Of a stretch of 64,000 bases of DNA, positions 52,396-55,232 are shown piece after piece. This DNA is from Neoroseomonas oryzicola (GTDB lineage Bacteria; Pseudomonadota; Alphaproteobacteria; Acetobacterales; Acetobacteraceae). Each line of letters begins with the position of its first letter. The stretch's first letter is position 1. The position numbers and the translations under genes were made by a program. A model generated the notes under the pieces. It did not search any database. It saw only the letters and a program-made list of their open reading frames with translations, and was not told where the DNA came from. The stretch spans positions 1-64,000 of the forward strand of contig NZ_JAAVUP010000009.1 of NCBI RefSeq assembly GCF_012163135.1, read 5' to 3'.

Positions 52396-53574
52396 TCAGG
52401 CGCGTTCGAGCAGGCCGTGCCGCGCGAGCCTGCGGCAGAAATCCAGCGCGCCTTCGCCAAGCGCGGCCGGCGTCGCGCCATCCTCGAGCGCCTGGAGCCA
52501 GTCTAGCTCCGCGGCCGAGAGCGTCTCGACGCCGCCATACCAGCGCAGCGCGGCGCCGCCCTCGGGCAGCGGGACGATGGCGTGGTGCATGGTCTCGGAC
52601 AGGCGCAGCCGGTCGTCGGGGCCTGGTGGCGGCGTATGGAGCGCGCGGCCGGGCAGGGACATCCGGTCGCGCAGCACGCGGTCGAGCGCGTTCACCGCCA
52701 TGCGGTCCGCGACATCGGGGCGGTCCAGCGCCTCGAGCGCGGCGGCGAGGCGGCCGCGCAGCAGCGCCACGCCTTCGGGCTCGGCCAGGCGCCAGGTCGG
52801 GATCGCCGCGCGCAACGCGGGTTCCTCCGCCTCGAGCTCGCCGAGCAGCGCGCGCAGCACCTCGCCCAGGCCCGGTTCGAGCAGGCCGATGGTGATGTGC
52901 AGGGATGGCTCGGCGCCGGCCTGGACCATCGCCTCGTGCATCACCCCGCGCGGCAGGTAGAGCGCATCACCCGGCGCCATCACCAGCTCATGCGGCTCGC
53001 CCTCGGGCGTGGCGTTGTTGCGCCAGGGCGTGTGGCGCGTCGGCGCGGCGTAGGGGATCGCGTCCCACACCCGCCAGGCCTTGCGGCCGGAGACCTGCAG
53101 CACCAGCACGTCATGCGTGTCGAAATGCACGCGGAATCCCTGCGCGCCGGGGGGCGTGAGGTAGATGTTCGCCTGCACGCCGTGCAGGAAGGCCTTTTCC
53201 AGCCCGCGGCAGAAGCGGGCGAGCGGCGGATGGATCTCGTGGAACTGGGAGACGACGAGACTGGCGCCCTCGTCGTGCCGGGCCATCAGGCGCGGCAGGT
53301 CGACGCGGTCGCCGCCCTCCTCGATGTACTCCTCGACCGGCACGGCGGCGCTGCCCTTGCGGGCGCCGTCGGCCATCGACACGCGCGGGGTGCGCGCCGC
53401 ATCGGTGCGCAGGAAGGCGTCGAGGTCGCCGATCGACAGCAGCCCCGTGAAGCGATCCGGATCGTTGCCCGGCATCAGACGCCAGGCGGTGCCTTCGCGC
53501 AGCGCCAGCCCGTCCTCGAGCGGCATGGTGCCGAAGGCGAGTGCCCAGGCCTCCTCGGCGAGTGTCGCTACCAT
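52396..53574 (-). CDS. JmjC/cupin_4 oxygenase (ribosomal-oxygenase-like)
   Basis: This 392-residue 2-oxoglutarate/Fe(II) oxygenase is of the bacterial YcfD (ribosomal oxygenase) type. Iron ligands are H150 and D152 in VHFDTHD and H213 in RGVMHEAM. LVLQVSGRKAWRVW is the typical double-stranded beta-helix strand pair. The C-terminal part resembles the dimerisation and winged-helix regions of these enzymes. Known relatives hydroxylate Arg or His of ribosomal proteins. Its start overlaps, by 7 bp, the gene of a DxDPxD-repeat protein, two more of which lie upstream. A substrate relationship is an attractive inference. Confidence 0.85.
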   Translation of the reverse strand: MVATLAEEAWALAFGTMPLEDGLALREGTAWRLMPGNDPDRFTGLLSIGDLDAFLRTDAARTPRVSMADGARKGSAAVPVEEYIEEGGDRVDLPRLMARHDEGASLVVSQFHEIHPPLARFCRGLEKAFLHGVQANIYLTPPGAQGFRVHFDTHDVLVLQVSGRKAWRVWDAIPYAAPTRHTPWRNNATPEGEPHELVMAPGDALYLPRGVMHEAMVQAGAEPSLHITIGLLEPGLGEVLRALLGELEAEEPALRAAIPTWRLAEPEGVALLRGRLAAALEALDRPDVADRMAVNALDRVLRDRMSLPGRALHTPPPGPDDRLRLSETMHHAIVPLPEGGAALRWYGGVETLSAAELDWLQALEDGATPAALGEGALDFCRRLARHGLLERA

Positions 53575-54005
53575 CGTGATCCTCTGCCGCGCCCGGCGGC
53601 ATCGCGCGGGTCGCTGTCTGAAAAGCCGGTGCGCGGGCGGCCTCGGCCGGCGGCATCGTTGGGGTCGCTGTCGGAATAGCCGGTGCGGGGCCGGCCGCGC
53701 CCGGCGGCGTCGCGCGGGTCGCTGTCCGAATACCCGGTCTGCGGCCGGCCCCGGCCTGCCGCGTCGCGCGGATCGCTGTCGGACATACCGGTGCGGGGCC
53801 GGCCGCGCCCGGCGGCATCGCGCGGGTCGCTGTCCGACATGCCGGTATGCGGCCGCCCGTAGCCGGCCGGATCGCGCGGATCGCTGTCGGAGGTCCCGGT
53901 GCGGCCCTGCGCCGCTGCGGCGGCGGGAACCAGGCCCGCGGAGGCGCCGACCACCACCAGCCGGCGCGTCAGCCGGCTGCGGCGGGCCTCGTCATCCGCG
54001 GGCAT
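53568..54005 (-). CDS. DxDPxD-repeat exported protein A
   Basis: The 145-residue protein belongs to no family I recognise. An N-terminal leader of about 33 residues (SRLTRRLVVVGASAG, then an Ala-rich run ending AAQ) looks like a twin-arginine-type signal. Six tandem units follow (residues about 34-145), consensus GRPRTGxSDSDPRDAAGR, each of 18 residues. The end is GRGSRW. Repeats are rich in Asp and Arg, with predicted disorder. Its 3' end overlaps the JmjC oxygenase start. It is 13 bp after protein B. Ca binding or modification by the oxygenase is speculative. Confidence 0.75.
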   Translation of the reverse strand: MPADDEARRSRLTRRLVVVGASAGLVPAAAAAQGRTGTSDSDPRDPAGYGRPHTGMSDSDPRDAAGRGRPRTGMSDSDPRDAAGRGRPQTGYSDSDPRDAAGRGRPRTGYSDSDPNDAAGRGRPRTGFSDSDPRDAAGRGRGSRW

Positions 54006-55103
54006 GGGTCATGCGCGCTCAGCGCCAGCCGCGGCCGCGGCCGGGCGCATCGCCCGGGTCGTTGTCGGTCACGTTGCGCGGGCGGTATCCGCCGCCGCGG
54101 CCGCGGCCCGGCCCGTCGCTGGGGTCGGCATCGGTGATGCCGGTGCCACGCTGGCGCCAGCCCGTGCCGTAGCCCGAGGGATCGCGCGGGTCGCCGTCGT
54201 TGATGCCGGTATAGGCGCGGCCCTGCGGCGCGGCGCGATAGCCGCGGCCCTGGCCAGCGCCGTCGCCGGGATCGTTGTCCGTGATGCCGGTGCGCGGTGC
54301 GCCGCGATAGCCGCCGCGGCCCTGGCCGGCGCCATCGCCCGGATCGTTGTCGGTGAGGCCGGTGCGCGGCGCGCCGCGATAGCCGCCGCGGCCATAGCCC
54401 GGCCCGTCGCCCGGGTCGGAATCGGTGATGCCGGTGCGGTACTGGACGGGCGTCGGCTCGAGCGCCTCGGCGGCGCGCGTGGCCGTCGCGGTCGCGCCCC
54501 CCGCGACCGCCAGGACGAGGAGGCGCCGGCCGAGGCTCCGCGACGGTGCGGGGCCGTCCGCCTGCGGCGCGCCGGGCGCACCCTTGGTGTCGTCACGTTC
54601 GGTCATCGCGTCGCTCTCCTTCCCCCAGGCGCATCATCCTGCGGAGAGCGCCCCTACGGCAAGGTTGCGCCACGCAGGCCGCGTGCGCCGGGTCACTACC
54701 AGCCGCGGCCGCGCCCCGGCGCATCGCGCGGGTCGCTGTCCGAGACCTGGCGGCGGGAACTGCCGCGGCCCTGGCCGGGCCCGTCGCCGGGATCGGCGTC
54801 GGTGTAGCCGGTGCGGGCGGGGCCCCTGTATCCGCCACGACCCTGGCCGGGCCCGTCGCCGGGATCGGCGTCGGTGTAGCCGGTGCGGGCGGGCCCGCGG
54901 TAGCCGCCGCGGCCCTGGCCGGGCCCGTCGCCGGGATCGGCATCGGTGTAGCCGGTGCGCGCGGGGCCGCGATATCCGCCGCGGCCCTGGCCGGGCCCGT
55001 CGCCGGGGTCGGCGTCGGTGTAGCCGGTGCGCGCGGGACCGCGGTATCCGCCGCGGCCCATGCCGGGTCCATCGGCCGGATCGGCGTCCGTGATGCCGGT
55101 GCC
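53571..55103. repeat. Coding repeat arrays in three adjacent genes
   Basis: Three in-frame arrays lie at 53571-53906, 54022-54438 and 54699-55103. Each encodes exactly six units with core T/S-D-x-D-P-x-D. Unit length is 18 residues in the first and about 22-24 in the other two. In the third, three consecutive 72-bp units and most of a fourth encode the same protein sequence, which suggests recent duplication or gene conversion. They are coding repeats, not CRISPR. Confidence 0.85.
54019..54606 (-). CDS. DxDPxD-repeat exported protein B
   Basis: This is the 195-residue second member. After a polar N-terminus, SRSLGRRLLVLAVAGGATA forms a twin-arginine-like signal. Six repeat units run from about residue 57, for example RTGLTDNDPGDGAGQGRGG. 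Units vary more than in proteins A and C, and one reads NDGDPRDPSG. The C-terminus is DAPGRGRGWR, similar to the ends of A and C. GGAAGGAG precedes the ATG. It lies 89 bp after gene C and 13 bp before gene A. No enzyme motif is seen. Confidence 0.75.
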   Translation of the reverse strand: MTERDDTKGAPGAPQADGPAPSRSLGRRLLVLAVAGGATATATRAAEALEPTPVQYRTGITDSDPGDGPGYGRGGYRGAPRTGLTDNDPGDGAGQGRGGYRGAPRTGITDNDPGDGAGQGRGYRAAPQGRAYTGINDGDPRDPSGYGTGWRQRGTGITDADPSDGPGRGRGGGYRPRNVTDNDPGDAPGRGRGWR

Positions 55104-55232
55104 GCGCGGCGCGTAGACCGGCTGGGGCGCGACGACGCACCCCGCCAGCGCCGGCGCCGCAGCGCCCACCGAGGCAAGCTTCAGCACCAGCATGCGGCGC
55201 TTCAGGCGCGGCGCGCCGTCATTCTCATCCAT
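54696..55232 (-). CDS. DxDPxD-repeat lipoprotein C
   Basis: The 178-residue first gene of the set has a twin-arginine-like stretch KRRMLVLK, then a hydrophobic region and lipobox ALAGC (Cys32), so it is a predicted Tat-type lipoprotein. Six units follow (residues 44-178); units 2-4 are identical at the protein level, with core TDADPGDGPGQGRGGYRG. The last ends DAPGRGRGW. ATG 55232 is preceded by GGGGGAAGGA. A divergent Bug gene starts 146 bp away. The function is unknown. Confidence 0.78.
   Translation of the reverse strand: MDENDGAPRLKRRMLVLKLASVGAAAPALAGCVVAPQPVYAPRGTGITDADPADGPGMGRGGYRGPARTGYTDADPGDGPGQGRGGYRGPARTGYTDADPGDGPGQGRGGYRGPARTGYTDADPGDGPGQGRGGYRGPARTGYTDADPGDGPGQGRGSSRRQVSDSDPRDAPGRGRGW

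What the first reader, a model, noticed from the sequence alone, without database searches (positions are those of the whole stretch)
52396..55232. Three tandem DxDPxD-repeat exported proteins with an overlapping JmjC-type protein oxygenase
Seen: three adjacent minus-strand genes (55232-54696, 54606-54019, 54005-53568) encode small exported proteins built almost only of repeats with core T/S-D-x-D-P-x-D, Gly and Arg. The last overlaps by 7 bp a gene for a JmjC/cupin_4 enzyme with intact H150, D152 and H213. Known: bacterial JmjC enzymes of the YcfD type hydroxylate protein side chains (Arg, His) and need 2-oxoglutarate and Fe(II). Known: Tat exports folded proteins, and all three leaders have twin-arginine-like stretches. 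Inference: the repeats are substrates hydroxylated (on Asp, Arg or Pro) in the cytoplasm and then exported, a repeat-peptide modification system I cannot match to a described one.
Basis: partly seen in the sequence, partly recalled or inferred. Interest (0 to 1): 0.88.

Follow-up and report, generated by a model that had tools for sequence, protein, structure and literature searches.

The report
Exported aspartate-repeat proteins with dedicated oxygenase
A bacterium carries genes for three exported proteins made of a short aspartate-rich repeat next to a gene for an oxygen-using enzyme, and because the two kinds of gene keep company in many related genomes the enzyme most likely decorates the repeats before export, which looks like an undescribed protein-modification system.

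Summary
Three minus-strand genes, six [T/S/N]DxDPxD units each, lead into a JmjC_2 (PF08007) oxygenase gene that overlaps the last by 7 bp.

The pairing holds widely. Of the 80 closest enzyme relatives kept, 72 have a repeat gene upstream; the other 8 genomes carry repeat genes elsewhere. In 250 genomes of the order, 45 have both and 201 neither; 3 have repeats with no or only fragmentary enzyme, 1 has the enzyme with a short TDND protein. In 387 genomes of the class, all 12 with strong repeat hits have the enzyme, and 12 of 13 enzyme genomes have repeats. Control JmjC loci: 0 of 30.

Repeat proteins carry RR leaders. Outlying substrate-like proteins lose Arg, Gly or Pro but keep DxD, so Asp is the likeliest target, not Arg or Pro. 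Best reading: Fe(II)/2-oxoglutarate-dependent Asp hydroxylation in the cytoplasm, then Tat export. Chemistry, order of steps and biological role are untested. My searches found no description of it.

The parts
54696..55232 (-). Repeat protein 1: RR leader with lipobox-like LAGC, then six units, mostly TDADPGDGPGQGRG
   Evidence: LAGC read directly from the sequence
54019..54606 (-). Repeat protein 2: RR leader, six units, one of them without Arg
53568..54005 (-). Repeat protein 3: RR leader, six units, mostly SDSDPRDAAGRGR
52396..53574 (-). JmjC_2 (PF08007) oxygenase, 392 aa, metal triad H150, D152, H213
53568..53574 (-). 7-bp overlap between repeat gene 3 and the oxygenase gene
52402..52608 (-). 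C-terminal domain of the oxygenase (about residues 323-391): strands followed by three helices, the order also used by RiPP recognition elements
   Evidence: secondary structure; comparison with the passage; Pfam scan of this part found nothing

Best explanation
The locus is an enzyme-substrate system. The JmjC oxygenase meets the newly made repeat proteins in the cytoplasm and, with Fe(II), O2 and 2-oxoglutarate, hydroxylates a residue in many or all units, most likely the beta-carbon of an Asp in [T/S]-D-x-D. It serves several substrates, encoded beside it and elsewhere in the genome. The proteins are then exported by Tat; protein 1 is probably a lipoprotein, proteins 2 and 3 periplasmic. 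Outside, the chain probably acts as a flexible envelope polymer, perhaps binding metal ions through its DxD clusters. Shown: the genes, their conservation and co-occurrence, the enzyme family with its predicted fold and intact triad, the RR leaders. Inferred: the reaction, the residue, the order of steps, the role (metal binding is the weakest step, about 0.25).
For: Adjacency in 72 of 80 kept relatives, repeat genes elsewhere in the other 8 genomes. Order: 45 genomes with both, 201 with neither, of 250; G007 and G015 of the window's genus lack both. Class: 12 of 12 strong repeat genomes have the enzyme, of 387 searched. Control JmjC loci 0 of 30. The window's genome has three further repeat genes on other contigs. 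Substrate-like proteins without the GxGRG repeat keep DxD: L177, L221, L305, a Streptomyces clavuligerus peptide, an Azospirillum peptide. Predicted fold nearest NO66 and MINA53, protein hydroxylases. RR leaders in 160 of 163 ORFs by script, the last 3 by eye.
Against: No activity, mass or localisation data. Four Streptomyces plasmid peptides beside related enzymes end in SDGGGTG[KR]SDGND, without DxD. Some JmjC enzymes in peptide clusters act on Orn, so the chemistry could differ. The window's leaders hit no Tat model and only 10 of 163 have the strict [ST]RRxF form. The genomes compared are related, so counts are not independent. The repeat proteins were partly chosen with patterns that require Asp and Gly.
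Confidence: 0.6

Rival explanations
1. Same enzyme-substrate pair, but the target is the Arg of GxGRG, hydroxylated as YcfD hydroxylates an Arg of ribosomal protein L16.
For: R13 is kept in 749 of 785 units (36 failures); YcfD is a relative; R180 of the enzyme is kept in 39 of 43 rows and lost in L177 and L221, whose substrate-like proteins lack GxGRG.
Against: L221's substrate-like protein has no Arg after its leader and the S. clavuligerus peptide has none at all; Asp positions fail 0 to 1 times in 785 units against 36 for Arg (set partly chosen for Asp); YcfD-like rows differ at positions 138, 154, 165, 209, 226; L079 lacks R180 yet has GRG units.
Confidence: 0.15
2. Same pair, but the oxygenase does other oxidative chemistry, such as cross-linking, desaturation or backbone change.
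For: 2-oxoglutarate enzymes in RiPP pathways do more than hydroxylate (title of a reference on macrocyclization seen in the list); relatives sit in clusters with LanM or radical-SAM genes.
Against: The nearest solved relatives NO66, MINA53 and YcfD are hydroxylases; JmjC enzymes tested in biphenomycin pathways hydroxylate.
Confidence: 0.12
3. The repeat proteins are precursors cut up outside the cell to release modified short peptides, signals or toxins to other bacteria, and not lasting envelope polymers.
For: Near-identical units; related enzymes lie beside short peptides in Streptomyces and in a cluster with a LanM gene.
Against: No protease or dedicated exporter was found as a constant neighbour, though I did not search for one systematically; a lipobox-like motif in 59 of 163 ORFs and a peptidoglycan-binding domain in one relative suggest retention.
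Confidence: 0.1
4. The neighbours are unrelated: the oxygenase modifies a ribosomal or other protein and only shares a transcript with the repeat genes.
For: Known kin modify ribosomal proteins (abstracts).
Against: Joint absence in G007 and G015 of the same genus; co-occurrence also where the genes lie apart; pairing in several families of the class and with poorly kept flanks.
Confidence: 0.03

Closest known systems
Ribosomal oxygenases NO66 and MINA53 (His) and YcfD (Arg), PF08007 family
   Same: Family, predicted fold and metal triad; nearest solved structures
   Different: Co-occurs with exported repeat proteins. The aligned place of MINA53 Ser257, which contacts its substrate His (passage; numbering offset inferred by me), is an invariant Gly; YcfD-like rows differ at five further places
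JmjC ornithine hydroxylases PbsQ, BpmG and BipG of biphenomycin-type RiPPs
   Same: JmjC enzyme encoded with its ribosomal substrate (passages)
   Different: Short precursors, Orn target, several partner enzymes; here long repeat proteins with RR leaders and one enzyme
RRE-fused PF08007 JmjC proteins (PMC12710340)
   Same: PF08007 with an RRE-like domain, bacterial homologues said to lie in RiPP-like contexts (passage)
   Different: That passage is about fish and algal proteins; the passage I saw names no substrate and no Tat-exported repeat proteins
Aspartyl/asparaginyl hydroxylases FIH and AspH
   Same: C-3 hydroxylation of Asp or Asn in proteins (starts of abstracts)
   Different: Eukaryotic enzymes with other substrates; FIH is only a distant fold match (E about 1e-8)

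Membership tests
JmjC_2 (PF08007) oxygenases | Profile match above cut-off | tested here: met
   91 bits against cut-off 22
JmjC_2 (PF08007) oxygenases | HxD...H metal triad and double-stranded beta-helix fold | tested here: met
   H150, D152, H213 invariant in 43 rows; model pLDDT 93, Foldseek best NO66 E 2.9e-24
JmjC_2 (PF08007) oxygenases | 2-oxoglutarate and Fe(II) dependent hydroxylation | not testable with these tools
   needs enzyme assay
YcfD (L16 Arg hydroxylase) | Orthology and shared pocket residues | tested here: not met
   YcfD-like rows (so called by me from weak similarity) form a separate branch and differ at 138, 154, 165, 209, 226
NO66/MINA53 (His hydroxylases) | Substrate-contacting Tyr and Ser | tested here: not met
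   Tyr kept as Y138, Ser replaced by invariant G230 (alignment, residues, rows)
RiPP-type systems | Precursor gene linked to its modifying enzyme gene | tested here: met
   72 of 80 kept loci
RiPP-type systems | Leader recognition motif bound by an RRE | tested here: inconclusive
   LxDx[DEQ]I motif in 7 of 163 ORFs and not in the window's three, seen by eye in more relatives; C-terminal strand-helix order fits but Pfam finds nothing
RiPP-type systems | Leader removal and a modified product | not testable with these tools
   needs mass spectrometry
Tat substrates | RR before a hydrophobic stretch; match to a Tat profile | tested here: inconclusive
   RR in 160 of 163 ORFs by script and in the last 3 by eye, strict [ST]RRxF in 10; TIGR01409 above cut-off in L221 only, 2 of 18 A3 members at E<=1; no Tat hit for the window's three

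The most novel reading that the evidence does not exclude
A widespread, undescribed class of Tat-exported, intrinsically disordered envelope proteins whose DxD repeats are oxidised many times over by a dedicated bacterial JmjC aspartyl hydroxylase, giving a ribosomally made metal-binding polymer; the same enzyme family reaches, through short DxDP peptides, into actinobacterial peptide clusters.
Probability: 0.35. Interest if true: 0.9.

Novelty: new variant of a known kind. Interest (0 to 1): 0.78.

Why it matters
If true, bacteria build and export proteins that carry many hydroxylated residues per chain, with one oxygenase serving several substrates. It would give a bacterial branch of PF08007 without a known substrate a substrate, tie JmjC protein hydroxylation to the logic of ribosomal peptide natural products, and open a simple two-gene test system. 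What such polymers do at the cell envelope of common soil and water bacteria would become a question that can be tested directly.

Tried and rejected
Arg or Pro as target: disfavoured, because outlying substrate-like proteins lack them. Ribosomal role like YcfD or NO66: disfavoured by co-occurrence and residue differences. R180 of the enzyme as a mark of GRG-containing substrates: suggestive only, since L079 breaks it and L177 and L221 are sisters in the tree. G230 as a difference from YcfD: dropped, YcfD-like rows also have Gly there. Structure of a repeat protein: pLDDT 47, consistent with disorder but from 18 sequences. Genes beside dispersed repeat genes, six loci read: no neighbour common to all; the two orthologous-looking loci L170 and L181 share an RTX-type protein. 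Megablast of the region against plasmids: the 20 rows listed show mainly transporter and lactonase genes. Weak repeat hits (E 9e-5 to 7e-4) in G316, G325, G561 and G578 were dropped from the class count. G887, an intermediate enzyme hit (E 6.6e-58), has a Nif11-like peptide beside it and no repeat match, and is not counted. Search of the YcfD paper PMC5862935 for pocket residues found no passage.
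Full report
WHAT IS THERE. The four genes are placed as stated. The three repeat genes lie head to tail, 89 and 13 bp apart, and the third overlaps the oxygenase gene by 7 bp; each has six units. Within a gene the units differ more at silent than at amino-acid-changing sites (pN/pS 0.26, 0.47, 0.12), so the peptide is what selection keeps. 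None of the three reaches a Pfam, NCBIfam or PHROGs cut-off. The enzyme matches PF08007 with 91 bits; by sequence its nearest solved relatives are MINA53 and NO66, then YcfD. The nearest named relative is 98% identical, in Neoroseomonas marina.

IS THE PAIR MORE THAN CHANCE? A scan of named genome contigs with an enzyme alignment found 303 relatives, of which the tool kept the best 80. A simple pattern finds a same-strand repeat ORF upstream in 71 of 80: in 70 it ends within 231 bp of, or overlaps, the enzyme gene; in L057 the nearest found lies 1,063 bp away. L060 has diverged units 8 bp upstream, so 72 of 80. The other eight (L045, L052, L054, L063, L067, L071, L081, L082) have no local copy, but all eight genomes have repeat genes elsewhere. 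By record title the hosts are mainly Roseomonas-like Acetobacteraceae, with Phreatobacter and another Hyphomicrobiales. The other window neighbours are less well kept: SMP-30 gene in 3 of 51 loci with full flanks, PhzF 9, TctA 17, TctB 18, TctC 22, the last of a large family.

CO-OCCURRENCE. Repeat profile A3 and enzyme profile A2 were run on the same 250 genomes of the order. Repeats: 48. Window-type enzyme (E below 1e-70): 46. Both 45, neither 201. Repeats only: G006, whose 4,093-base contig ends 81 bp after the second repeat gene, and G223 and G239, which have only enzyme fragments. Enzyme only: G228, which has just before the enzyme a short RR-leader protein with TDND. G007 and G015, in the window's own genus, lack both. 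In 387 genomes of the class, 12 have strong repeat hits and 13 the enzyme at E below 1e-80; 12 are shared. Two of these, G025 and G037, had rows in both query models, and the window's genome is another. The odd one, G425, has its enzyme at a contig end; a weak search (E 0.077) shows an RR-leader protein with TDSD and no GxGRG. In 299 genomes of the phylum the enzyme profile gives four further strong hits, G868, G864, G775 and G790. The repeat profile was not run on that whole sample but on seven chosen handles; for these four it scores weakly (best E 0.32, 6.1e-6, 4.5e-8, 0.033), and reading shows divergently transcribed RR-leader proteins with D-x-D-N-G units next to all four enzymes. The genomes are related, so the Fisher value of 8e-45 is not a true probability. 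Control: 30 loci of other JmjC_2 genes of lower similarity, including the second paralogue of the window's genus, mostly with 1.5-kb flanks and two genes present twice, hold no ORF with two or more units; the same test finds 72 of the 80.

ONE ENZYME, SEVERAL SUBSTRATES. The window's genome has three more repeat genes on other contigs. In 160 distinct repeat proteins, 785 units were found allowing two mismatches in nine places; failures were D2 0, D4 1, D7 0, G12 0, G10 8, P5 20, R13 36, G14 187. The proteins were first chosen by a pattern that asks for Asp and Gly, so the figures lean that way.

WHICH RESIDUE? The outliers are the best clue. A second enzyme in G532 (L221) follows an RR-leader protein ending DPIGEGSDYDPNDPIGGGSDTDPVDPIGEGTDYD, with no Arg in that part. 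G228's protein ends TDNDTGRGSDYVGQTDND. In Streptomyces clavuligerus a relative (36% identity over 91% of the L218 enzyme, E 4e-61; 37% over half of the window's enzyme) follows a 48-residue peptide with ADNDPSDPP and ADPDPFDP and no Arg. An Azospirillum plasmid enzyme, a long branch in the tree, follows a peptide with ADQDP. All of these keep D-x-D. Against this, four Streptomyces plasmid peptides (L247-L250) end in SDGGGTG[K/R]SDGND, without DxD; their enzymes branch in another group. So Asp is preferred, not proven.

THE ENZYME. AlphaFold2 on 43 relatives gives pLDDT 93; Foldseek ranks NO66 first, then MINA53, YcfD and YxbC. H150, D152, H213, Y138, H154, D155, K165, R209, S224, H226, T228, G230 and R255 are invariant in those rows. 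Ser257 of MINA53, which contacts its substrate His (passages of PMC9994133), aligns with G230 on the alignment, by a numbering offset that I inferred. YcfD-like rows differ at 138, 154, 165, 209 and 226 but also have Gly at 230. The C-terminal part runs strands then three helices. A paper on RiPP recognition elements notes RRE-like domains fused to PF08007 JmjC in fish and algae and bacterial homologues in RiPP-like contexts (passage of PMC12710340). A Pfam scan of the part found nothing bearing on this. In a quick-method tree the repeat-linked enzymes fall in two groups: the window's (30 rows), and one of 18 rows that also holds the Rhizobium etli enzyme, whose annotated neighbours are a radical-SAM protein and others. 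How the groups relate is unresolved.

EXPORT. Of 163 distinct repeat ORFs with three or more units, 160 have RR before a hydrophobic stretch by script and the last three by eye; 10 have the strict [ST]RRxF form, and a loose lipobox pattern fits 59. TIGR01409 passes its cut-off in one relative; 2 of 18 A3 members match it at E up to 1. The window's three match no Tat model. One relative has a peptidoglycan-binding domain after its repeats (E 1.6e-18). The repeat chain is predicted disordered (pLDDT 47).

MECHANISM AND STANDING. Best reading: multi-site, 2-oxoglutarate-dependent hydroxylation of Asp in the repeats in the cytoplasm, then Tat export, to give a modified envelope polymer. I hold the pair as functional partners at about 0.9, Asp as target at about 0.65, metal binding at about 0.25. 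The ten paper searches (two searches listed 20 of 43 and 17 of 19) cover an open-licence library only. They led to JmjC enzymes acting on Orn in biphenomycin-type RiPPs (passages of PMC12257519 and PMC12707348) and to the RRE remark, and to no Tat-exported DxD-repeat system. I file it as a new variant of a known kind (dedicated enzyme plus ribosomally made substrate) with a substrate class that appears undescribed.

Noticed in passing
L170 2393-5203 (-) and L181 5904-8465 (+): Dispersed repeat genes in two Neoroseomonas-group genomes lie beside large proteins with an RTX calcium-binding / serralysin C-terminal region (PF00353, PF08548).
   Followed up: partly
L247, L248, L249, L250: Streptomyces plasmids carry 45-52 aa peptides ending SDGGGTG[KR]SDGND, followed by a JmjC gene, an aldo/keto reductase and a phosphotransferase or hypothetical gene: looks like a peptide-modification cluster.
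   Followed up: partly
L246 2539-6146: Rhizobium etli plasmid: a related JmjC gene near a radical SAM/SPASM gene and a 77-aa peptide gene.
   Followed up: no
L263 about 1045-2682: G887: a JmjC gene directly after a Nif11-like leader peptide, with a LanM-like reading frame after it (by eye).
   Followed up: no
L252 2070-2375 and L254 upstream of about 2501: Mycetohabitans and Streptantibioticus JmjC genes lie by peptides ending in GGPSC; in Mycetohabitans a radical SAM gene is near.
   Followed up: no
L193 1300-2142 (-): A repeat protein fused to a C-terminal peptidoglycan-binding domain (PF01471, E 1.6e-18).
   Followed up: partly
G000:C51:108450-109343 (L171): A second, diverged JmjC_2 gene in the window's genome and its genus, with no repeat genes nearby; at L029 an OmpA-like reading frame follows it (by eye). 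Its substrate is unknown.
   Followed up: partly
plasmid search: 25 Escherichia plasmid records hold a distant match to the oxygenase; not looked at.
   Followed up: no
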